Assembly: GCF_002142155.1 (NCBI RefSeq)
Contig: NZ_NASD01000010.1
Location: forward strand, 1-64,000
Direction: 5' to 3'
Source: Gilliamella apis
GTDB taxonomy: Bacteria > Pseudomonadota > Gammaproteobacteria > Enterobacterales > Orbaceae
DNA: 64,000 nucleotides
Shown: positions 16,788 through 29,011 of the stretch, in pieces
Position numbering within the stretch: the stretch's first letter is position 1
Layout: the number at the start of each line of letters is the position of its first letter
Made by a program: the position numbers and the translations under genes
The notes under the pieces: generated by a model
Told to the model about the DNA's origin: nothing
The model's database searches: none
What the model saw: the letters and a program-made list of their open reading frames with translations, nothing else

Positions 16788-17135
16788 GGTTTTTCCTAAA
16801 TAAAAAATTTAAACAAATACTAAAATAGAACCAATGCTACATATGATATCTTTTAAGATTATATAGTTTATTGATAATTAGTTTATCAAAAACCAACAAA
16901 AAAGTGAGTTTTTTTAAAGGTAAACATTGCTTTTAGCATCTATTTATTAGAAGATTATTTATATTAGAGTTTTTATGAAAAATATCTGTTTTTAACTCTT
17001 ATCTACCAATTTTATTGGCAATATTGAACGCCAAATATTTGTACAATAACAAAATTAAAATACAATAAACAACAATCTTTACTGAAATGCATACTTAGAT
17101 TATTTGTTGCATATAAAAATATAGGAATAGAACAC
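16788..17135. other. Divergent intergenic region, no gene seen
   Basis: This 348-bp, very AT-rich stretch separates the minus-strand SWIM gene from the plus-strand secreted protein. It must hold the promoters of both. I see no open frame, hairpin terminator or recognisable operator. Confidence 0.5.
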
Positions 17136-17729
17136 ATGAAAGAACTATTAAAAAAAATCACTATATTATCTTTGTTGTTTGCAGCCCCATTATTTGCCAA
17201 CCCAACTACTGAAAACATATCCATATTTAAAAAACAGAAGGAAGTTTTAAATGATGGAATAGAATATTTAACTTACTCAGCAGATATTGATGATGGTCGC
17301 TTTGTATTTATTGTTAATAATTATTCTAATAAAAACGATTATTCCAGAGAAGCGGTTGCGAGATATATCGTCGGTAACAATATTTATCGTGTAGTTTTAG
17401 TTGAGTTTTGTGTCGACGAAACTGATCTATGTGGTGAATTACCTACATTATTAACCCCGGTAGAAAAATTTGCTGATACTTTCTATCATGGTGAAGATCC
17501 TACAAATTACATTTGGAAGATCACTTACGTCAAAAATGATAAATTAGTCACTATTGAAGAATTTGCTACAATACCTAAAGTAGGTGATTTAAATGATTTT
17601 GTTGGTAAAATTCCGTCAGAGGAAGATGAAGAGGAAGGTATGGACTCTTCTATAAAGTATAATGAACAAGATATTAATTATAAACCATACATTCTAGATT
17701 GGGGCTATGGACCAAAAGTCAAACCATAA
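17136..17729 (+). CDS. Secreted acidic protein of unknown function
   Basis: The 197-residue protein begins with a clear Sec signal peptide (about 1-21, ending LFAAPLFA). The mature part is acidic, with EEDEEEG near 170, two cysteines close together (CVDETDLC) that could form a disulfide, and an aromatic tail (YKPYILDWGYGPK). I do not recognise the family. It stands alone between divergent and convergent neighbours. A periplasmic or surface role is inferred only from the signal peptide. Confidence 0.7.
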   Translation: MKELLKKITILSLLFAAPLFANPTTENISIFKKQKEVLNDGIEYLTYSADIDDGRFVFIVNNYSNKNDYSREAVARYIVGNNIYRVVLVEFCVDETDLCGELPTLLTPVEKFADTFYHGEDPTNYIWKITYVKNDKLVTIEEFATIPKVGDLNDFVGKIPSEEDEEEGMDSSIKYNEQDINYKPYILDWGYGPKVKP

Positions 17730-17825: not shown

Positions 17826-17854
17826 TAAAAAATGCAAACAATTGTTTGCATTTT
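17826..17854. terminator. Bidirectional intrinsic terminator
   Basis: The 20-base palindrome ATGCAAACAATTGTTTGCAT is flanked by an A-tract before and TTTT after. It separates the plus-strand secreted protein (ending 17729) from the minus-strand TonB receptor (ending 17874), so it can serve both. Confidence 0.8.
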
Positions 17855-17873: not shown

Positions 17874-19910
17874 CTACCATTTATAGTTAAGCGTTCCTAC
17901 CACACTGCGTTCCGCACCGTAATAACACCAATAACTACAACCTGATACATATTTTTTGTCGGTTAAATTAGTTGCATTAACTTGTACTGACCATGATTTA
18001 TTAAACTGATATTTAACCATTGCATCCCATAAGGTATAACTAGGTACACTTTCATTTGGATAATAGACTTCATCAACAGTTTTACCAATATAACGAAGCC
18101 CTGATCCAACAGTTAACCCATCAAGCTGACCATCAAATTTATAATTTACCCAAGCTGAAGCAGAATGTTTTGGAATTAATGAACTACGTGTTGTCAATGA
18201 AGCTGTTTGATCTGTTTTAGCATGAGTATAAGTATAAGCAAAATCCATATCTATACTTTTAGTAATATCAGCCTTTATTTGTAACTCTACACCTTTACTG
18301 CGTGCTTCTAATGTTTGTGATGCTTGCCCTGTCCCATTAGAAACAAATGAATTCTGAGATTTAATATCAAAATAGGCCAGAGTAAATGTACCATTTAACC
18401 AATCAGGCTCATACTTACCCCCTACTTCCCACTGTTTTGCTTCATAAGGTCGATACATTGTTTTGTTGACACTATCATAGCCATACACTGGCAAAAATGA
18501 TTCTGAATAATTTATATAAGGTGCAATATTGTTATCGAAAATATACATTAAACCAGCATTATAGGCATTATGGTTATAATCACGATTAAAATCAGAACCA
18601 CTCCAGTATCCATCATTTTTTATTTTGCTATGACGGATACCTTGATTGAAAATCAGTTTATTATCAAAAGTCAGTTGATTTTGTACATATGCACCTAATT
18701 CTTGTGCTTTTAATTTAAAAGGTGAATAACTACCTGTAATATTTGAATGAGTTAATCTTGGTTTAAAACGATTCACTGTACTAGCGCTGCCACTAAAATT
18801 ATTTCCACTCATATTGGTATTTAAATAATCAATTCCAATTAATAATGTGTCTCGCCAATTTCCATATTCAAAATCTTTAGAAAGGCGATTATCAATTGTG
18901 TGAGTATTGTTAATACCTATTTGAGAATATGCAAAACGTGAATAATTTTTTCCATCAACTGTTGGTGTGAAATCCATACCATAAACACCTGATAAATCTA
19001 AATCTTGATGAGCATATTTATAGTTTTGCGTAAAAACAAGTCCATTATTGAATTGATGTCTAAATTCATAACCGACCGTTTCTGATTTACGATTAAAATT
19101 ATCAAAATCTTTATCACCGTAATAAGTATCCCTTGCCACTTTCCCATATTTAGAATGAAATAGCGTGCCATAAGCAGGGAAAAATCCATTTTCAGGAATG
19201 CCAAAATCACGTTGGAAACTTGATAATAAAGTTAAAGAAGTTAGTTCATTTATGTCCCATGTTAAACTCGGTGCAAAATAATAATGCTTTAATCCAGTTT
19301 TGGTTTGTTGTCCATTTTCATCTCGATAGGCACCCACTAATCGATATCGTACATCATCAGTTAATATACCACTATAATCTCCATTTATTCCTACTTGTGC
19401 ATGTGTTCCATAAAACACATTAACTTCACCAGCTGGAGCCTTTTTGGGACGTTTGGATATCATATTGACGGTACCGCCAGGTTTAGATGAACCATATAGT
19501 TGAGAACTTGCGCCCTTTAATACTTCTATTTTTTCCAGTCCGAAAATTTCAGGTGTTGAACCAAAATAACTATAAGTAAATTGAGGCATACCGTCTAAAG
19601 TAAATGAAACATCTAATCCTCTAATTTTTAACCAATTTGTGCGGCCATCATGACCATATGAACTATTTAATACGCCAGAAGTATAAGATAGTGCTTCGTC
19701 GACTTTTTTATAGTCTTTATCTTTAATCTGCTTTTCATCAATAGAATCTGTCGATTGAGTATCATAAAATTTGACCGTGCCTGTTTTGGCCATTGAACCA
19801 ACAACTTCCATTGTATCAGTTGTTTCAGCATATGCGATGATAGGTAAAACAGATAATATAGAACAAACTAAAATACGTTTTTTAGGTTTAAAATGAGTTG
19901 AATAACTCAT
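17874..19910 (-). CDS. TonB-dependent siderophore receptor (FhuA/FoxA type)
   Basis: The 678-residue protein has a signal peptide (about 1-28) and a TonB box DTMEVVG (32-38). Its plug domain contains VDEALSYTSGV and IEVLKGASSQLYGSSKPGGTVN. The rest is a 22-strand-type barrel with many aromatic strands ending in YKW. The plug motif LYGxxxPGGxVN is the siderophore-receptor signature. It is the last gene of the Fur-controlled operon and would pass ferric siderophore, probably a hydroxamate given fhuBCD, to the periplasm. An AAAGGAG site lies just upstream of the start. Confidence 0.93.
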   Translation of the reverse strand: MSYSTHFKPKKRILVCSILSVLPIIAYAETTDTMEVVGSMAKTGTVKFYDTQSTDSIDEKQIKDKDYKKVDEALSYTSGVLNSSYGHDGRTNWLKIRGLDVSFTLDGMPQFTYSYFGSTPEIFGLEKIEVLKGASSQLYGSSKPGGTVNMISKRPKKAPAGEVNVFYGTHAQVGINGDYSGILTDDVRYRLVGAYRDENGQQTKTGLKHYYFAPSLTWDINELTSLTLLSSFQRDFGIPENGFFPAYGTLFHSKYGKVARDTYYGDKDFDNFNRKSETVGYEFRHQFNNGLVFTQNYKYAHQDLDLSGVYGMDFTPTVDGKNYSRFAYSQIGINNTHTIDNRLSKDFEYGNWRDTLLIGIDYLNTNMSGNNFSGSASTVNRFKPRLTHSNITGSYSPFKLKAQELGAYVQNQLTFDNKLIFNQGIRHSKIKNDGYWSGSDFNRDYNHNAYNAGLMYIFDNNIAPYINYSESFLPVYGYDSVNKTMYRPYEAKQWEVGGKYEPDWLNGTFTLAYFDIKSQNSFVSNGTGQASQTLEARSKGVELQIKADITKSIDMDFAYTYTHAKTDQTASLTTRSSLIPKHSASAWVNYKFDGQLDGLTVGSGLRYIGKTVDEVYYPNESVPSYTLWDAMVKYQFNKSWSVQVNATNLTDKKYVSGCSYWCYYGAERSVVGTLNYKW

Positions 19911-19927
19911 AGTTTTCTCCTTTTTGG

Positions 19928-20061
19928 TTATGAACTGAGCTCGTGAAATTGATCATTGAACTCCTCAATAATGCCATCAGTATGCTCAAAATATTGTTAT
20001 CATGACTAATAGCAAAAATAGTATGACCATATGGTTTAAAAGTTTGCAAAAAAGCCGACAT
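19928..20061 (-). pseudogene. Remnant of a siderophore/cyclic-peptide ABC exporter
   Basis: Directly after the fhuB stop, a frame reads TFKPYGHTIFAISHDNN. This matches the H-loop region of PvdE/SyrD-type exporters (L-x-GKTI-aISHDD-YF). After a one-base frameshift it continues YFEHTDGIIEEFNDQFHEL to a stop at 19928. Only about the last 45 residues of a roughly 550-residue protein remain, with no Walker A or transmembrane domain. The ancestral operon probably read fhuB, exporter, receptor. Confidence 0.72.
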
Positions 20062-20063
20062 TA

Positions 20064-22037
20064 TCAAGAACGCCTTATTAGATAGATAAAGCAAGACCCA
20101 CCAATCAGTGATGCCATGACTCCTGTTGGAATTTCGTAAGGAAACATAATATTACGACCTAACCAATCAGCAGCGATCATTAATATGCTTCCAATTAGCG
20201 ATGACATGAGTAATTGACTACGGATGAAATGATAACCAATAATCCGAGTAATTAATGGTGCAAGTAGACCAATGAAACTAAGTGGTCCAATTTGTAATGT
20301 GGCTAAAGTGATTAAAATGGTCGAAACGACAATTAATAAAAAACGAGCAATATTGCTATTCATGCCTAATGCATTGCTCATATTTTCTGGCAATTCCAAC
20401 AAGCTTATTGGTCGTGAAAATATCAATAAGATAAATAAAATGAATAATGCTACTAAAAATATCACCACACTACTTAGTAGCCCACTACTGTATGTTGATC
20501 CCGATAACCATATTAATAAATATTGAATACGCGGATCGCCAGTAACTAAAAATAATTGAATCAGAGCCGTTAAAAAAGCTGCAAAAGCTATCCCCGTTAA
20601 AATCACTTTTTCTGGTTGGAATTTATTTTTAATATTAATTGCAATAATAAATAAAAAGGTCAGTAGAGCACCCAATAATCCCGGCAACCAAAGTGGCATG
20701 ATGTCATACCCCATCGCCATAACTGTGACAATAATAGCAATAGCTGCACCTGAGCTAATACCTAACAAATCAGGGCTAGCCAGAGAATTATGGGTCATGC
20801 ATTGCAGTAAAACACCACACATGCTTAACATGATTCCAGCCGAAATGGCAGTGATAATTCTTGGTAATTTAATGTTTAAAAGAGAATGATTCCAACCAGT
20901 CGATATAAAACCGTATTGTGTATTACTGATTGTTAAACTAGACCATAATAATATTAAGATTATTAATATCGCTAATATCCAGTGTCCCCTTGTTTTTATG
21001 GGCGTTAATAAATCACATCGAGTTAAAGAGTTATTATTTGATATACTAATTGTTGTAGGTAACGCTTTGAAAATTAAATAAAGCAATAAAGGTGTTCCAA
21101 TAAATGCACTGACTGTGCCGACAGGCAAATAAAACGAACAATAGAACTGGATAATAACTAAAAGACAATCTGTTAATAATAAAATTAATCCTGCTGTTGT
21201 ATATGAAAAGAGAAGCTTATGCCAGGCTTTGGTTAACTGCAATTGATTAATCATGGTAACTGCGGCTAAGCCGATAAATCCAATCATCCCAACTAAACTT
21301 AGTGTTGTAGCACATAAATAAGCGACAAACAAAATACAGACAACACGGATAACCACTACCGATACACCTAAGCTTTTTGCTTGAGTTTCACCTAATTGCA
21401 TAACTTCAAATGAGCGCAATAATAAAATCAAGATGGCAAATGCAATCAAAGAGACAATAACTATCTGTTTGACATCATGCCAACTATCTTGAATTAATGA
21501 GCCAGCTTGCCAAGCAAAAATGTTTTTAGCCGCTTCAGGATGGAATATAACTAATGCTGTGGCTAATGCTCCCAAATATAAATTTAATATCAAACCTGAC
21601 AGTAGCATCCTGATTGGTAAAAATTGATTACGATAAGACATCATAAACACAAGCAGTAAACTGGCAAGTCCACCTAAAAATGCAATCATTGCACTACTTA
21701 ACCAAAGTAATAATGATGGTATAAATAGATGAGTGCCAAGTAGGGCAATATAAGCACCGCTACTTACAGCTAACGTTGAATCAGAGGCTAAGGGATTATA
21801 AGTAACTTGCTGTAGAATGATGGTACTAATACCTAATGCCCCACCAACCAATAAAGCCATAGTAAAGCGAGGTAACCAGTTATCGACAAGAATTATACGT
21901 TTTAATACACTTACTTGAATTAAATCAACTTGCAAAAAAGGCTGATGTAACTCATGCACAATAATCCAAACGATTGCTATCATAGCAAGTAAAAAAAGAG
22001 ATAAATTAATTAAGATGATTTTCTTCAATGCCGACAT
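20064..22037 (-). CDS. fhuB: Fused ferric-hydroxamate ABC permease FhuB
   Basis: The 657-residue membrane protein is a tandem duplication of two FecCD-type permease halves (about 1-325 and 345-657), each with about ten membrane segments. GGALGISTIILQQVTYNPLASDSTL in the first half corresponds to CGVLLQCMTHNSLASPDLLGISSG in the second. Fused FhuB is typical of the hydroxamate importer FhuBCD. It begins 4 bp after fhuD. The start shares ATGTCGGC with the exporter remnant just downstream of its stop. Confidence 0.93.
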   Translation of the reverse strand: MSALKKIILINLSLFLLAMIAIVWIIVHELHQPFLQVDLIQVSVLKRIILVDNWLPRFTMALLVGGALGISTIILQQVTYNPLASDSTLAVSSGAYIALLGTHLFIPSLLLWLSSAMIAFLGGLASLLLVFMMSYRNQFLPIRMLLSGLILNLYLGALATALVIFHPEAAKNIFAWQAGSLIQDSWHDVKQIVIVSLIAFAILILLLRSFEVMQLGETQAKSLGVSVVVIRVVCILFVAYLCATTLSLVGMIGFIGLAAVTMINQLQLTKAWHKLLFSYTTAGLILLLTDCLLVIIQFYCSFYLPVGTVSAFIGTPLLLYLIFKALPTTISISNNNSLTRCDLLTPIKTRGHWILAILIILILLWSSLTISNTQYGFISTGWNHSLLNIKLPRIITAISAGIMLSMCGVLLQCMTHNSLASPDLLGISSGAAIAIIVTVMAMGYDIMPLWLPGLLGALLTFLFIIAINIKNKFQPEKVILTGIAFAAFLTALIQLFLVTGDPRIQYLLIWLSGSTYSSGLLSSVVIFLVALFILFILLIFSRPISLLELPENMSNALGMNSNIARFLLIVVSTILITLATLQIGPLSFIGLLAPLITRIIGYHFIRSQLLMSSLIGSILMIAADWLGRNIMFPYEIPTGVMASLIGGSCFIYLIRRS

Positions 22038-22041
22038 ACAA

Positions 22042-22950
22042 TCACCATGTATTCACTGTTTGCTTAGTTAAAGCGTTGGTTAATGAAGAACTAAACCGTT
22101 GCATTGAAGGTAACGCTCCAAATCCCCACACAGAGGGTAAAATATAATAATTTCCCTGCTGACTAAATGGCAACTTTTGCCATAATGAATTTTTTTCTAA
22201 TTGCTGATTAACATTAGCTGGATAAGGTTTAACAATAATAAGACTCGTATTTTTGGGTAATGTCGTTAAGTCGATTAAACTAATTTGACTAAATCCCCAT
22301 GCATTTGTCGAATGTTGCCATGCATTATCTAAATTCAATTTAGTTAATACCACACCGTATAAACTATTGGCGCCATAGATACGTAACTGATGAGAGTCAA
22401 TAAATTGCACAACTGCATAGGACTGCTTTGGTATTGTCTTTAAGCGTTGAATATTATCAGTAAACTGTTTTTCAGTCTGGCTTATCAATATCTGAGCCTG
22501 ATTAGTTCTGTTGACTAGTTGCGCTAATTTTTCTGTTGTTTGTACGATGTACGACCAACTTGTACCTTCATTTGTGTAAAAATCAATTGCAGCTAACTTT
22601 ATCGGAATAATATTTTTGGGGATCAGATTTTGTGTCCAAGTTGAATTTATCAATAGAGTGGGTTTTAAATTAGCAATTACTTCTAAATTAGGTTGTGATC
22701 TTAATCCTAAATCAACAATATTATCATTTAAGACAGGTTCACCTACCCACGTGGCATACTCTTTTGTATCACCTACTCCCACTAAAGGTGCTTGTAAAGC
22801 TAATAATGTTTCTGCGATAGTCCAATCCGTAGTGATAATTCTAGTTGGGTTATCAAATTGTGCATAATCCTGATTACTATCAGGTAAATGTATTATCCAT
22901 AAAATAGAGCTTACAATAACAAAGCTAATTAAGGTTATTTTGAACTTCAT
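22042..22950 (-). CDS. fhuD: Periplasmic siderophore-binding protein FhuD-like
   Basis: The 302-residue type III binding protein begins with a hydrophobic signal/anchor segment (about 5-22). RIITTDWTIAETLLALQAPLVGVGD and LGLRSQPNLEVIANLKPTLLI match the FhuD/FecB fold, including the first lobe and hinge helix. It would deliver ferric hydroxamates to FhuB. Its start overlaps the fhuC stop by 4 bp and its stop lies 4 bp before fhuB. Confidence 0.9.
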   Translation of the reverse strand: MKFKITLISFVIVSSILWIIHLPDSNQDYAQFDNPTRIITTDWTIAETLLALQAPLVGVGDTKEYATWVGEPVLNDNIVDLGLRSQPNLEVIANLKPTLLINSTWTQNLIPKNIIPIKLAAIDFYTNEGTSWSYIVQTTEKLAQLVNRTNQAQILISQTEKQFTDNIQRLKTIPKQSYAVVQFIDSHQLRIYGANSLYGVVLTKLNLDNAWQHSTNAWGFSQISLIDLTTLPKNTSLIIVKPYPANVNQQLEKNSLWQKLPFSQQGNYYILPSVWGFGALPSMQRFSSSLTNALTKQTVNTW

Positions 22951-23711
22951 GCTAAAGCAACCTTATGACTTCGAGTAGGATGATCAATGATCTCAAAATG
23001 AACACCATAAATTTCCCGTAAAATCGATGGCGTAATCATCTGTTTTGTCGGTAAATCATAAATTAATTGACCTTGTTTAAAAGCTAATAACTGGTCACAA
23101 AACTCACTAGCCAAATTAATATCATGAAGCACAATAATAGTCGTTATTTGATTCTTTTTGGCCAGCTGTTGAAGTAATTTCATTACTTCAATTTGATAAT
23201 TAATATCTAACGCTGAAAGAGGTTCATCAAGTAAAAGATATTGACTTTGCTGTGCTAAACACATGGATAACCAAACTCGTTGACGTTCTCCTCCTGACAA
23301 TGAGCTCAAAAAACGTTCTTTAAGATGTGCAGTATTTGTTTGTATTAATGCTTGATCAACAATTTTAAAATCTTTTTCCGTATAACGTTCAATTATGCCA
23401 TGCCATGCAAATCGCCCTAATTTAACCAGTTCTTTAACCGGCAGATTAATGTCAGTAGGCAAATATTGTGGTAAATAACTTAGTATTCTCGCAAGCTGTT
23501 TATGTGAATAGTGAGTGAGTTCTTTTTCATCTAATGTAATAACACCAGATGTTGCGGCAATTTGCTTTGCTAATAATTTAATAAATGTCGATTTGCCAGA
23601 ACCGTTATGACCAACAATACCATAGACAAGCCCTGGTTGAAATTGAGTCGTTACATGATTAACAACAAGGGTATCTTGAATTTGGTATTCAATATCTTGA
23701 GCAATAAGCAT
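22947..23711 (-). CDS. fhuC: Siderophore ABC transporter ATPase FhuC
   Basis: The 254-residue ATPase has Walker A GHNGSGKST (34-42), signature LSGGERQRVWLSMCLAQ, Walker B YLLLDEPLSALD and the H-loop IIVLHDINLA. Order and spacing match FhuC/FepC. It energises FhuB-mediated import. It lies 59 bp downstream of the MFS gene and overlaps fhuD by 4 bp. Confidence 0.93.
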   Translation of the reverse strand: MLIAQDIEYQIQDTLVVNHVTTQFQPGLVYGIVGHNGSGKSTFIKLLAKQIAATSGVITLDEKELTHYSHKQLARILSYLPQYLPTDINLPVKELVKLGRFAWHGIIERYTEKDFKIVDQALIQTNTAHLKERFLSSLSGGERQRVWLSMCLAQQSQYLLLDEPLSALDINYQIEVMKLLQQLAKKNQITTIIVLHDINLASEFCDQLLAFKQGQLIYDLPTKQMITPSILREIYGVHFEIIDHPTRSHKVALA

Positions 23712-23770
23712 ACTAATTTAATTATCCATCTAATTACACTTTAAAGTTATCCTATCTACCTATTCTGCTC

Positions 23771-24985
23771 CTATTTTCCCATTGTTCGGTTTGCATAGAA
23801 TGCATTTAAAAATGCGAGTACTATTGAGCCGATTACAACTGGAAAATAACCAAATTTTTTTGCCAGATAATAACTTAGTGATATTACGATAAATCCACAT
23901 ATAAAACTTGGCGCTGATTGAGCATTACAAGCAGTAGAACGTGCCTGTGAACTATCTGAGTTGTCCATTATGATGGCAGTAATCGCAATAGACATTAAAG
24001 GTAAACTAAAGAAGTAAAGAAAACAGGCTAAATAGACATTAAAAATATTAACATAACCTAACGAGATCGGGATGAATGCAAGTAAAGCAAACGCATGAAA
24101 AAGTAATGAATAGGTTAAACTTTGTTTCCTAGATAATCGTTTGAGGATTTTTGCAACTAATATAACAGCCACTAAGCTAACAATGGATCCAAATACTTTT
24201 AATAAAATAGCAATATCTGATAATGCCCAACCATCATCGACAAGTATTGGTGATAATAGATTATAAGCCGGTAGGAAACTAAACGGCATAAGTATCAAAA
24301 TAATTAACCAATTAATTCTACCTTTCCAGATGATAATCAGATCTTTCCAATATTGAGGATCCATATTTTCATATGTTGGCTTATTTTGACAGTAACGGTA
24401 CTCTTCAAAAAAGAAAAGTTGAATTAATGTAAATCCAATTAAAATAGCAATTAATAATAAACAACCCATCCAACCAATATAGGCATAAAGTAGTAAAATT
24501 ACTCCGCCGCCTAAAATATTACCTATCATAGAACCACTGGTTTTTATACTTGAAATAAGATAACGTTGCTGAACTAAAAAAATATTACAGGCTAATCCCG
24601 ATATGGCTAATTCTTGAGTTGCAGTCATGGTCGAAAAAATAAAAATGATGGGTAAAATGATATAAAACTGTTGTATAGGATCTAAAAAAGCTATAAATAT
24701 TAAACATACTAACATTAGCGTTAAAGAGATAAATAACCAATTGCGATAATGAGATATTCGTCTTTTTAAATATTTATCAATAACAGGTGCCCATAAAATT
24801 TTTAAACCAATTGGTAACATCATTAAAGGAATAAGACTTAACTGGTCTAACTCCATGCCATCTTTTCTTAGGATTAAAGCTAAGGCGATAGTTAAAAAGC
24901 CAATACCAACATATTCTGTAATATAAAGACTTACAAATAATAACCATACATTTTTAGGTAATTTAATTGTTGCATTGTCATTCAT
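23771..24985 (-). CDS. MFS transporter, RhtX/FptX-like siderophore permease
   Basis: The 404-residue permease has about 12 membrane segments. LPKNVWLLFVSLYITEYVG, then LMMLPIGLKILWAPVIDKY, resembles the RhtX/FptX family of inner-membrane siderophore importers, which is related to AmpG. It is the first intact gene after the Fur-regulated promoter and sits with fhuCDB. It could import a second siderophore, perhaps the ligand of the deleted receptor upstream, or release siderophore. Direction cannot be told from sequence. Confidence 0.8.
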   Translation of the reverse strand: MNDNATIKLPKNVWLLFVSLYITEYVGIGFLTIALALILRKDGMELDQLSLIPLMMLPIGLKILWAPVIDKYLKRRISHYRNWLFISLTLMLVCLIFIAFLDPIQQFYIILPIIFIFSTMTATQELAISGLACNIFLVQQRYLISSIKTSGSMIGNILGGGVILLLYAYIGWMGCLLLIAILIGFTLIQLFFFEEYRYCQNKPTYENMDPQYWKDLIIIWKGRINWLIILILMPFSFLPAYNLLSPILVDDGWALSDIAILLKVFGSIVSLVAVILVAKILKRLSRKQSLTYSLLFHAFALLAFIPISLGYVNIFNVYLACFLYFFSLPLMSIAITAIIMDNSDSSQARSTACNAQSAPSFICGFIVISLSYYLAKKFGYFPVVIGSIVLAFLNAFYANRTMGK

Positions 24986-25107
24986 TTACTAATTATCCTT
25001 TTGCAGTACCTATTTTGTGGTCATAATATTTTCATTAATACTATTTTTTAGTAGTAAAAAATAAAACAAATTTAGATTTTTCGTACATTTAATATTTAAC
25101 ATATTTA

Positions 25108-25227
25108 TTAATAGTTTATTTGTGCAGAAATACCTACTTGTCGTGGTTGCTGATAAGTTCTATATCGAGAAGATGAGGACATAAAGCACAAGCTAAATAA
25201 ACTAAATTTTGCAGTTATCTTTTTCAT
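25108..25227 (-). pseudogene. Internally deleted TonB-receptor ghost (signal peptide joined to last strand)
   Basis: A 39-codon frame begins MKKITAKFSLFSLCFMSSSS, a signal peptide, and ends YQQPRQVGISAQINY. The ending looks like the last barrel strand of a TonB-dependent receptor (aromatic, PR, alternating residues, terminal aromatic). Over 600 codons are missing in between. It sits directly behind the Fur box, where the first receptor gene of such an operon is expected. The peptide may still be translated as the operon leader. Confidence 0.6.
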
Positions 25228-25244
25228 CCGAATATACTAAAATT

Positions 25245-25263
25245 GATAATGATTTTCATTTGC
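25245..25263 (-). promoter_or_regulatory. Fur box of the siderophore operon
   Basis: The 19-mer beginning GATAATGATTTTCATT matches the Fur consensus GATAATGATAATCATTATC at 15 of 19 positions. It lies just downstream of a consensus -10 element on the minus strand, over the expected transcription start. Iron-bound Fur would repress the whole siderophore operon from here. Confidence 0.85.
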
Positions 25264-25264
25264 G

Positions 25265-25293
25265 ATCATATAGATTGGAAAATAAGCTGTCAA
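25265..25293 (-). promoter_or_regulatory. Strong sigma-70 promoter of the siderophore operon
   Basis: On the minus strand a perfect -35 TTGACA (25288-25293) is separated by exactly 17 bases from TATGAT (25265-25270), 5/6 to the -10 consensus. The Fur box follows at once. It drives the receptor ghost, the MFS gene, fhuC, fhuD, fhuB and the TonB receptor. Confidence 0.85.
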
Positions 25294-25450: not shown

Positions 25451-27064
<1,614 letters not shown>

Positions 27065-27081
27065 TTAATTTGAGATGTCAA

Positions 27082-28782
27082 TTAAACAAAAGCAACAACT
27101 AATGGTCCTAATAACGTTAGGAAAACATTAGCTAAAGCATAGGTAATAGCAAAAGAATTGGTAGGAGTTGAGTTACCCGCTTTATTAAGTACTTCACCAA
27201 AAGCAGGATTCGCACTGCGAGAGCCAGCTAAAGCCCCGGCAAATACAGCCGAATTTTTATAACCTAGCACATACTTACCAAAATAAATACCAAGTAACAT
27301 CGGCAATAAAGTCACCACAACACCGATTAAGAATAATGAAAGACCTTGATCTTTAATCGTATTAATGGCTTGTAAACCTGAGCTTAGCCCAACCACGGCT
27401 ACGAAGCCAGCTAGACCAAAGTCTTTAAGTAATTGCACTGCTCCAGTTGGAATATTGCCAACAGTTTGATGCAAAGAGCGATACCAACCAAACAATAAAC
27501 CTGATAATAATGCACCACCACCTGCACCTAAAGTGATTGGAATATCACTGACTCGGATCACAATAAGACCAATAATAAGTCCAACAACAAGACCTAAACC
27601 ATGGAATATCCAATCAGTTTTTTCACTTTTGGTAATCGGCGCACCAATTCTGTCAACCACACGCCTTAAATCACCATCGGTACCATAAATGGTAATAACA
27701 TCACCTAACTTAAATACCATATCATTATTTAATGGCAATGGTTGTCCATCACGATGAACAGCAATTAAATAAATACCATGCTTTAATTTCATCACTTCGT
27801 CAGATGAAAGCACTTGCGTTAAATTTTGACCGACATATCGAGTATTACGCATTTCAACATCTTGGGTATTCATCACCACATCCATACCCTGTGCTGAATT
27901 CACTTCTTCACCCAATAAATCAGCTGCAGCAATCATGGCATCCCGATGACCAACAACCAAAATAATATCTTTGGCTTTTAATAAAGTTTCTGGTGCAGCT
28001 TCAATAATACGATTGCCACGTTTGATTCGCTCAATACTAATACCATTAATCACCTTTTCTAAACTTTCAACGGTTTGATTAACCTTATTAGTAATACGAT
28101 ATAAGCGACCAGTTACATCAGATAAAGCAAAGTTTTGACCACTACCTAATAAAAGCGAGCCATGTAATTGTTCTGCTTCGGCCTTAATTGCATCGTCGTT
28201 AATTTCTCGCCCCATAATTTTCGGCAAAATGTTAACACAGACAATAATCGCGCCCAGTGAACCAAATATATAAGTCACTGCATAACCAATGGTTACATTA
28301 CTTTGTAATCGGCTTAACTCTTCTGGGCTTAAGCCTAGCTGAGTTAGCGCATCAGATGCCGTACCCATAATGGCAGATTGTGTTAATCCTCCTGCAGCTA
28401 AACCAGCAGCAAGACCTTTATCTAAATTGAATAATTTGGCTAAAACTACTACCGTTACAAAACCAGCAACAGCAATAAATAATGCTAAAAAGATTTCACG
28501 TAGAGTTTTAACTCCTAATGAACGGAAGAATTGTGGTCCACTTTCGAAACCAACAGCATAGATAAATAAAGCGAAAAGCACCGCTTTAACGCCAGCATCG
28601 ACAGTAACACCAAATACACTTAATGCCACTGCTACCAATAATGAACCAGCAACACCACCTAATTGAAATTTACCAATTCGAATTCCACCAATCAAATACC
28701 CTAAGCTTAAAGAGAGAAATAAAAGTATTTCGGGTGAATGCTTAAGTCCATCTAAAATCCAATTTGAAAGCCATTGAAACAT
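27082..28782 (-). CDS. aspT: Aspartate:alanine antiporter AspT
   Basis: The roughly 566-residue protein has two blocks of membrane segments flanking two cytosolic TrkA-C (RCK_C) domains, as in the AAE transporter family. GSRSANPAFGEVLNKAG near the C-terminus and GGLTQSAIMGTASDAL in the first block are the paired family motifs. It exchanges external aspartate for internal alanine electrogenically. GAGGA precedes ATG 28782 by about 8 bases, so the upstream TTG at 28797 is not favoured. It is co-transcribed with aspD. Confidence 0.93.
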   Translation of the reverse strand: MFQWLSNWILDGLKHSPEILLFLSLSLGYLIGGIRIGKFQLGGVAGSLLVAVALSVFGVTVDAGVKAVLFALFIYAVGFESGPQFFRSLGVKTLREIFLALFIAVAGFVTVVVLAKLFNLDKGLAAGLAAGGLTQSAIMGTASDALTQLGLSPEELSRLQSNVTIGYAVTYIFGSLGAIIVCVNILPKIMGREINDDAIKAEAEQLHGSLLLGSGQNFALSDVTGRLYRITNKVNQTVESLEKVINGISIERIKRGNRIIEAAPETLLKAKDIILVVGHRDAMIAAADLLGEEVNSAQGMDVVMNTQDVEMRNTRYVGQNLTQVLSSDEVMKLKHGIYLIAVHRDGQPLPLNNDMVFKLGDVITIYGTDGDLRRVVDRIGAPITKSEKTDWIFHGLGLVVGLIIGLIVIRVSDIPITLGAGGGALLSGLLFGWYRSLHQTVGNIPTGAVQLLKDFGLAGFVAVVGLSSGLQAINTIKDQGLSLFLIGVVVTLLPMLLGIYFGKYVLGYKNSAVFAGALAGSRSANPAFGEVLNKAGNSTPTNSFAITYALANVFLTLLGPLVVAFV

Positions 28783-29011
28783 AATAATTGTCCTCAAGTG
28801 CTAAGATTTATGAAATAGAAAAAGATAGAAAAGAAAAGATTGGAACTTGAATAATATTCATACTAATTTATGAATATGGATATATTTTAAACTTCAATAC
28901 CAAGAATAGATAGTTAATTTTAACAATTAATATTATTGTCAGTAAATAACATTATATTGTCTAAAATATTAAATAGAAAAATATAATATCAACAATGAAT
29001 TCAACATAAAA

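What the first reader, a model, noticed from the sequence alone, without database searches (positions are those of the whole stretch)
17874..25293. Fur-regulated siderophore operon that kept import but lost an exporter and a second receptor
Directly seen: a consensus promoter with a Fur box, then a TonB-receptor ghost, an intact MFS transporter, fhuC, fhuD, fused fhuB, an ABC-exporter ghost and an intact TonB receptor. Family knowledge: PvdE/SyrD-type exporters move siderophores or peptides they are made with. Inference: an ancestral produce-export-import locus has decayed into an import-only locus, a scavenging or cheater state. The ghosts are well enough preserved to be dated by comparison with relatives.
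Basis: partly seen in the sequence, partly recalled or inferred. Interest (0 to 1): 0.8.

Follow-up and report, generated by a model that had tools for sequence, protein, structure and literature searches.

The report
Mosaic iron-import operon with two remnants
A bee-gut bacterium carries an iron-scavenging operon pieced together from two uptake systems; one old receptor and one export pump survive only as stubs, and relatives suggest the pump belonged to the import machinery rather than to a lost siderophore factory.

Summary
On the minus strand of a Gilliamella genome a promoter with a Fur-like site leads into a receptor stub, an MFS gene, fhuC, fhuD, fhuB, an ABC-exporter stub and an intact TonB receptor. 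Relatives identify both stubs. The receptor stub is a 39-codon remnant of a 671-694-aa FyuA-like receptor (RecA), intact upstream of the MFS gene in five other Gilliamella genomes. The exporter stub (about 40 of ~540 codons) is the end of a YojI-family exporter, intact between fhuB and receptor in another genus of the family and in two further genomes.

The genome looks import-only by the three marker families searched. But the three genomes with the exporter intact at that place lack these markers too, and in 21 of 26 sampled genomes holding both best matches the exporter and an FhuA-type receptor are neighbours (18 of the 21 from one family). So the exporter is more likely an exit pump tied to uptake than a relic of a siderophore factory, though part of its wider family does sit with NRPS genes. 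The locus is a mosaic: a yersiniabactin-type module joined by an Fhu module, eroded differently in different lineages. What the exporter carried is untested.

The parts
25265..25293 (-). sigma-70-type promoter TTGACA-17-TATGAT
   Evidence: 11 of 12 consensus positions; TTGACA is seen in 7 of 7 Gilliamella leaders, TATGAT or TAAGAT in 6 of 7. Number of promoter-like hits in the region is not above shuffles, so conservation is the argument
25245..25263 (.). Fur-box-like operator just after the -10
   Evidence: 1 mismatch to the recalled pattern; 16-17 of 19 to a recalled consensus in 7 of 7 Gilliamella leaders, 0 of 300 shuffles each
25108..25227 (-). stub of receptor A (RecA, FyuA-like): 39-codon open frame joining the start to the end of the receptor
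   Evidence: intact 671-694-aa copies at the same site in L049, L050, L145, L146, L147; junction fits a deletion of about 1.9 kb between 8-bp direct repeats, both present exactly in 2 of 4 intact copies examined; a different stub in G015
23771..24985 (-). MFS transporter, RhtX/FptX-like (inner-membrane siderophore importer class)
   Evidence: TIGR02718 2.4e-32 but 112 bits, below the 356-bit cut-off; dN/dS 0.10-0.14 against seven relatives
22947..23711 (-). fhuC, ATPase
   Evidence: best NCBIfam match FhuC, below its cut-off; dN/dS 0.216 against G015; early stop codon in the G032 MAG copy
22042..22950 (-). fhuD, periplasmic binding protein
   Evidence: best NCBIfam match FhuD, below cut-off; best solved chain 7w8f (named only a putative binding protein) 7.5e-40, FhuD / ferrichrome-binding chains 5.4e-35 to 2.8e-34
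20064..22037 (-). fhuB, permease
   Evidence: NF007866 FhuB 595.5 bits, above cut-off 554; full-length at 97-100% in 3 of 35 Gilliamella genomes
19937..20055 (-). stub of a YojI-family ABC exporter (C-terminal end, frameshifted)
   Evidence: intact gene at the same place in L088 9759-11384, over the NF007813 and TIGR01194 cut-offs
17874..19910 (-). receptor B (RecB), TonB-dependent, similar to FhuA, FoxA and the enantio-pyochelin receptor
   Evidence: TIGR01783 over cut-off; best solved chains 3qlb enantio-pyochelin receptor, FoxA, FhuA; dN/dS 0.05-0.13
17829..17854 (.). palindromic hairpin after the operon, possible terminator
   Evidence: listed as terminator-like on the + strand only, count not clearly above shuffles (5 vs mean 3.5)
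25451..28797 (-). flank: aspartate 4-decarboxylase and aspartate-alanine antiporter genes marking the site in relatives
   Evidence: both over NCBIfam cut-offs; next to RecA or its stub in 8 of 8 loci compared

Best explanation
The locus is an import-only siderophore operon with a Fur-type promoter, built from two uptake modules. The older one at this site is a yersiniabactin-type module (FyuA-like receptor RecA, in one genome a YbtPQ-like ABC pair, and an RhtX/FptX-like MFS importer). An Fhu module (fhuC-fhuD-fhuB-exporter-RecB) was added behind the MFS gene. In the window lineage RecA was then cut to a stub and the exporter to its last ~40 codons, leaving RecB to bring a ferric siderophore through the outer membrane with TonB, FhuD to bind it and FhuBC to move it inward. 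The lost exporter was a YojI-family pump that is genetically tied to the receptor in relatives. I infer that it was an exit route for what the receptor and importer let in: spent or excess foreign siderophore, or toxic look-alikes such as microcin- or albomycin-type compounds. Shown: gene content, stubs, intact relatives, linkage, absence of the searched synthesis markers. Inferred: order of events, substrates, and the exporter's role.
For: Intact RecA upstream of the MFS gene in G013, G014, G034, G001 and (with an ABC pair between) G009, all downstream of the same aspartate genes. RecA's best solved match is the pesticin receptor (FyuA), 4.7e-20; the ABC pair in G009 matches the yersiniabactin importer chains 6p6i_A at 1.9e-124 and YbtQ at 2e-138. 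FhuB at 97-100% in only 3 of 35 Gilliamella. G014 keeps only a decayed fhuC start and lacks fhuD, fhuB and RecB, colinear on both sides. Intact exporter between fhuB and RecB in G290, G231, G277, over YojI and TIGR01194 cut-offs, 40-48% identical to E. coli YojI. No IucA/IucC and no condensation domain in G000, G290, G231, G277. Exporter adjacent to a RecB-type receptor in 21 of 26 genomes with both best matches; in Aeromonas caviae the order is receptor-exporter-fhuC-D-B. Two more distant relatives sit in fhu import clusters. One TonB_C match in each of 6 genomes incl. G000. In print: YojI gives resistance to microcin J25 by efflux, FhuA imports it (PMC10926693, passages); a Bradyrhizobium exporter of another family expels foreign siderophores and probably albomycin (PMC10760861, abstract).
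Against: Three of seven sampled distant relatives lie beside NRPS genes. Thirteen of the 16 fhu loci fetched have no exporter between fhuB and receptor, so it is dispensable or a later addition. Of 71 exporter-bearing genomes, 45 had no RecB-type match at the cut-off used, and in E. coli yojI lies apart from fhu. Of the 21 adjacent pairs, 18 come from one related group (f26). The exporter tree does not resolve whether it travelled with fhuB. The synthesis search covered three marker families. FhuC, FhuD, RecB and MFS fall below the cut-offs for those exact names. The receptor substrate was not determined.
Confidence: 0.68

Rival explanations
1. One reading: an ancestral locus made, exported and re-imported one siderophore; synthesis and export were lost and import kept, giving a scavenger or cheater.
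For: Own genome lacks the searched synthesis markers. Part of the exporter family sits with NRPS genes: Azotobacter, Janthinobacterium (with ornithine hydroxylase and receptor), Alteromonas.
Against: Genomes with the intact exporter at the homologous place have no IucA/IucC or condensation match either. No synthesis gene among 29 of 34 further ORFs scanned around those three operons; the ORFs of the other 13 loci were not annotated. The lost receptor is of a different uptake type.
Confidence: 0.12
2. The exporter in fhu operons is specifically a defence pump against toxic compounds that enter through the hydroxamate receptor; its loss in Gilliamella reflects absence of such compounds or a receptor that no longer admits them.
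For: YojI family membership of the intact copies, published YojI efflux of microcin J25 and FhuA as its receptor, gene adjacency to the receptor.
Against: No toxin or sensitivity data for these organisms; the same linkage is expected if the pump expels spent siderophore.
Confidence: 0.3
3. The exporter expels iron-free or excess foreign siderophore after uptake (recycling or homeostasis), as ExsFGH does in Bradyrhizobium.
For: Linkage with the whole importer, also in Azospirillum (with a siderophore-interacting protein) and Tistrella; precedent in PMC10760861 (abstract).
Against: ExsFGH is an RND pump, not an ABC exporter; no transport data here.
Confidence: 0.3
4. The whole operon is dying and no longer works.
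For: G032 (a MAG) has an early stop in fhuC and lacks two codons beside the ATP-binding motif; the missing codons and nearby residues are shared with the decayed G014 copy. G014 lost fhuD, fhuB and RecB.
Against: All five genes are open in the window and in G015, with dN/dS 0.05-0.22 in the nine usable comparisons; promoter and Fur-like site conserved.
Confidence: 0.12

Closest known systems
E. coli fhuACDB ferrichrome uptake system
   Same: Receptor, ATPase, binding protein and single-chain FhuB permease in one cluster; FhuB model passed
   Different: Gene order C-D-B-(exporter)-receptor instead of A-C-D-B; an MFS gene and two stubs in the unit; receptor 32% identical to FhuA
YojI of E. coli (microcin J25 efflux ABC protein)
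   Same: Intact copies in G290, G231 and G277 pass the NF007813 (PRK10522) and TIGR01194 cut-offs
   Different: E. coli yojI lies between alkB and mqo, not beside fhu; here the relative lies between fhuB and the receptor and in the window is only a stub
Yersiniabactin import set FyuA-YbtPQ-YbtX (names partly recalled)
   Same: RecA, the ABC pair of G009 and the MFS gene are the matching classes
   Different: RecA-FyuA similarity is modest; MFS is below the RhtX/FptX cut-off; in the window RecA is a stub and no such ABC pair stands at this site
ExsFGH of Bradyrhizobium japonicum
   Same: Proposed role: exporter handling foreign siderophores (abstract)
   Different: RND family, unrelated protein class

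Membership tests
FhuCDB hydroxamate importer | FhuB permease over the curated cut-off | tested here: met
   NF007866 595.5 bits vs 554
FhuCDB hydroxamate importer | FhuC and FhuD over their curated equivalog cut-offs | tested here: not met
   FhuC 249.5 vs 433, FhuD 165.2 vs 252; they are nevertheless the best matches
FhuCDB hydroxamate importer | transport of ferric hydroxamates | not testable with these tools
   no transport data
FhuA ferrichrome receptor | curated FhuA equivalog cut-off | tested here: not met
   NF007465 367.9 vs 803; only the general TonB-siderophore model TIGR01783 is passed (300.7 vs 223.5)
FhuA ferrichrome receptor | ferrichrome-contact residues | tested here: inconclusive
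   ten positions recalled; one does not fit FhuA itself in my numbering, several fall in gaps, few are kept
YojI-family exporter | NF007813 and TIGR01194 cut-offs, intact relatives at the same place | tested here: met
   3 of 3 proteins tested
YojI-family exporter | family assignment of the window stub itself | tested here: inconclusive
   only ~40 codons in two frames; not run against the models, assigned by position and alignment
RhtX/FptX MFS siderophore importer | TIGR02718 cut-off 356 bits | tested here: not met
   112.4 bits
FyuA-type receptor (RecA) | closest solved chain | tested here: met
   4epa pesticin receptor 4.7e-20; only two chains match at 1e-5
Siderophore producer | IucA/IucC, NRPS condensation or full-length Lys/Orn hydroxylase in G000 | tested here: not met
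   0, 0, and two short partial hits

The most novel reading that the evidence does not exclude
Many bacteria that only borrow siderophores keep a dedicated YojI-type exit pump genetically paired with the hydroxamate receptor, so that entry and exit form one unit; E. coli YojI would be a member of that pair that became unlinked, and its microcin J25 efflux would be one instance of clearing what comes in through FhuA. Loss of the pump while import is kept, as in this Gilliamella lineage, would be a natural experiment.
Probability: 0.35. Interest if true: 0.65.

Novelty: new member of a known kind. Interest (0 to 1): 0.45.

Why it matters
It corrects a common inference: an exporter beside siderophore uptake genes does not by itself show that the organism once made a siderophore. 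It gives a concrete, testable proposal for what YojI-type exporters do outside E. coli, and shows one chromosomal site at which related gut symbionts hold different mixes of two iron-uptake modules.

Tried and rejected
Considered the stubs as chance matches: rejected. Considered that G014 never had the Fhu module: rejected, since a decayed fhuC start remains there. Looked for exporter remnants in the fhuB-receptor gaps of the 13 loci lacking it (L089, L090, L093-L103): no row printed has E below 0.015, with E-values relative to each short gap. Looked for remnants of the G013 NRPS cluster within L144, L172, L173 and L175 (about 20 kb each, not the whole genomes): none at 1e-3. Ferrichrome-contact residues: uninformative. 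Trees: the five Orbaceae fhuB rows group together (100/100), but the exporter tree is unresolved where it matters and has long branches. One dN/dS value (fhuC against G032, 1.289) was dropped because that copy has an internal stop, which upset my codon threading. An earlier count said the G032 fhuC has only a 6-bp deletion; one search corrects this. Whether the pairing of YojI-type exporter and receptor is in print: searches showed no title or abstract start stating it; the list showed 12 of 217 papers, and most listed papers were not opened. Structure prediction was not used.
Full report
What is there. The window lies in a 2.52-Mb genome in 54 contigs (G000). On the minus strand between 25293 and 17874 lie, in order: a promoter with a Fur-like site, a receptor stub, an MFS gene, fhuC, fhuD, fhuB, an exporter stub and a TonB receptor gene, RecB. 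fhuC and fhuD overlap and fhuD and fhuB are 4 bp apart.

Receptor stub. An intact receptor (RecA, 671-694 aa) stands upstream of the same MFS gene in G014, G013, G034, G001 and G009, all next to the same aspartate antiporter and decarboxylase genes. In the window a 39-codon frame joins its start to its end. In two of four intact copies examined, an 8-bp sequence occurs exactly twice, 1899 bp apart, at the two places that meet in the stub; the stub's junction differs from it by one base. A deletion between short direct repeats is the simplest cause (inference). G032 has the same kind of stub as the window, G015 a different, longer one: either independent deletions, or a second deletion nested on a G015-like allele. 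RecA is closest to the solved pesticin receptor, FyuA (second name recalled). In G009 an ABC pair stands between RecA and the MFS gene; its two members are closest to the two chains of the yersiniabactin importer. RhtX, FptX and YbtX are MFS siderophore importers (PMC8891985, passages). So RecA and MFS look like parts of a yersiniabactin-type uptake module; the MFS protein is below the curated RhtX/FptX cut-off.

Fhu module. Full-length FhuB at 97-100% identity occurs in 3 of 35 Gilliamella genomes. G014 has RecA and MFS intact and then a decayed fhuC start; everything from there to about window position 17,070 is missing and both flanks are colinear. So at one site some lineages keep RecA plus MFS (G001, G009, G013, G014, G034) and others MFS plus FhuCDB plus RecB (G000, G015, G032). 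In G032, a MAG, fhuC has an early stop and lacks two codons, sharing the missing codons and nearby residues with the G014 remnant; recombination or MAG mixture are both possible. Against G032, fhuB and recB show lower synonymous divergence (dS 0.025, 0.036) than the flanking aspartate decarboxylase (0.185), which would fit exchange of the module between lineages (inference, few genes). In the window and G015 all five genes are open, and dN/dS lies between 0.05 and 0.22 in the nine usable comparisons of recB, fhuB, fhuD, fhuC and MFS with G015 and G032.

Exporter stub. It matches the last part of a YojI-family exporter that is intact between fhuB and the receptor gene in G290 (same family, another genus), G231 and G277. 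Of the 16 loci fetched, 3 have the exporter there and 13 do not; one of the 13 (G250) has an unrelated ORF in the gap. In the family labelled f26 five loci were fetched: in L148 and L150 the ORF map shows receptor, exporter, fhuC, fhuD and fhuB, in L149 receptor, exporter and fhuB, in L151 and L152 receptor and fhuB only, the exporter being known there from the coordinates. A named Aeromonas caviae record has the same order, so f26 is probably Aeromonas; f9, the family of G231 and G277, is probably Pasteurellaceae (both inferences). Joining the best matches of two 394-genome searches, 26 genomes hold both a RecB-type receptor (E 1e-100) and the exporter (E 1e-60). In 21 the two matches lie 77-179 bp apart (18 in f26, 2 in f9, 1 in the window's family); in 5 they do not, 4 of these on different contigs of draft genomes and 1 at 443 kb (on the tables). 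The 18 from f26 are one related group, not independent cases. Of the other genomes, 45 of 71 with the exporter had no RecB-type match and 30 of 56 with the receptor no exporter match at these cut-offs; E. coli yojI is not near fhu.

Is the exporter a sign of lost synthesis? In 16 genomes chosen by hand, IucA/IucC: 0 of 16; NRPS condensation domain: 7 of 16, none in G000, G032, G014, G009, G020, G290, G231, G277 or G184; Lys/Orn hydroxylase: hits over the cut-off in 15 of 16, but each covers only 72-191 of 339 positions, the longest in a broken frame, so probably other flavoproteins (inference). The genomes with the intact exporter between fhuB and receptor thus look like non-producers too. Around those three operons 29 of 34 further ORFs were scanned with Pfam; none is a siderophore synthesis gene. 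More distant relatives on plasmids are mixed: of seven sampled, one per genus, three lie beside NRPS genes (Azotobacter, Janthinobacterium, Alteromonas), three beside a TonB receptor without a synthase in the ~13.5 kb shown (Methylomagnum, Azospirillum, Tistrella), one beside other ABC genes (Vibrio harveyi). The seven were picked by hand from 55 records; records of enteric bacteria and Pseudomonas aeruginosa were not opened.

Mechanism. Uptake: RecB with TonB (one TonB_C match in G000), FhuD, FhuBC; substrate class inferred from FhuB, not shown. Exporter: efflux by YojI is linked to microcin J25 resistance in E. coli, and FhuA takes that peptide up (PMC10926693, passages); YojI needs TolC (PMC8277102, passages). 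In Bradyrhizobium a different pump expels foreign siderophores, and its mutant is more albomycin-sensitive (PMC10760861, abstract). Linkage of a YojI-type pump with a hydroxamate-type receptor fits an exit route for imported cargo. That step is inference, and so is the choice between defence and recycling.

A better producer/non-producer pair. G013 and G034 carry an NRPS cluster with a TonB receptor, an AraC-type regulator and an MFS gene. In G013 it holds an AMP-binding plus chorismate-binding protein, an NRPS with three condensation domains, a reductase-ended NRPS and a thioesterase (Pfam); the G034 proteins were not scanned. G000, G014, G015 and G020 carry the same receptor-regulator-MFS set without that NRPS (regulator confirmed by Pfam for G000). 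If a locus in this genus shows makers and takers, it is this one. A salicylate-type product is my reading of the domains. Whether G000 lost the NRPS or never had it is open: no remnant was found near it, though G001 has a 156-aa condensation fragment at a related locus.

Prior work. A Gilliamella pan-genome paper lists NRPS and siderophore among eight cluster types in 147 strains (PMC9598484, passages). I saw no paper in the lists that describes this operon or the exporter-receptor pairing; few were opened.

Verdict. A sound observation of a mosaic, import-only operon with two real stubs; the lost-factory story is the less likely reading. Interest 0.45, mainly for the exporter-receptor pairing.

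Noticed in passing
L169, L170 (G013), L171 (G034); G000:C11 = L144 5142-9639: NRPS cluster (in G013: AMP-binding + chorismate-binding protein, NRPS, thioesterase) with receptor, AraC-type regulator and MFS in two Gilliamella genomes; the window's genome and three others have only the receptor-regulator-MFS set.
   Followed up: partly
L168 1188-16799 (G015, beside the aspartate antiporter): A 4960-aa NRPS with thioesterase and a phosphopantetheinyl transferase gene sits just upstream of the aspartate antiporter in G015, a few kb from its fhu operon; no condensation domain in G000.
   Followed up: partly
window 25451-28797: Aspartate 4-decarboxylase and aspartate-alanine antiporter genes (both over curated cut-offs) mark a site behind which Gilliamella genomes hold different iron-uptake gene sets.
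   Followed up: partly
window 17136-17729: 197-aa plus-strand ORF with no Pfam or NCBIfam match at 0.001; a similar ORF lies at this place in G015, and the region is missing with the fhu module in G014.
   Followed up: no
L174 8804-9274 (G001): 156-aa condensation-domain fragment between a split RecA-like receptor and an ABC-protein pair: a possible NRPS remnant.
   Followed up: partly
L188 5905-8727 (Tistrella mobilis plasmid): YojI-like exporter directly behind receptor, ATPase, binding protein and fhuB, next to three NHLP-type RiPP precursor genes on the other strand.
   Followed up: no
L032 5254-6012 (G032 MAG): fhuC with an early stop and two missing codons, sharing features with the decayed G014 fhuC remnant; suggests recombination between lineages or a mixed MAG.
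   Followed up: partly
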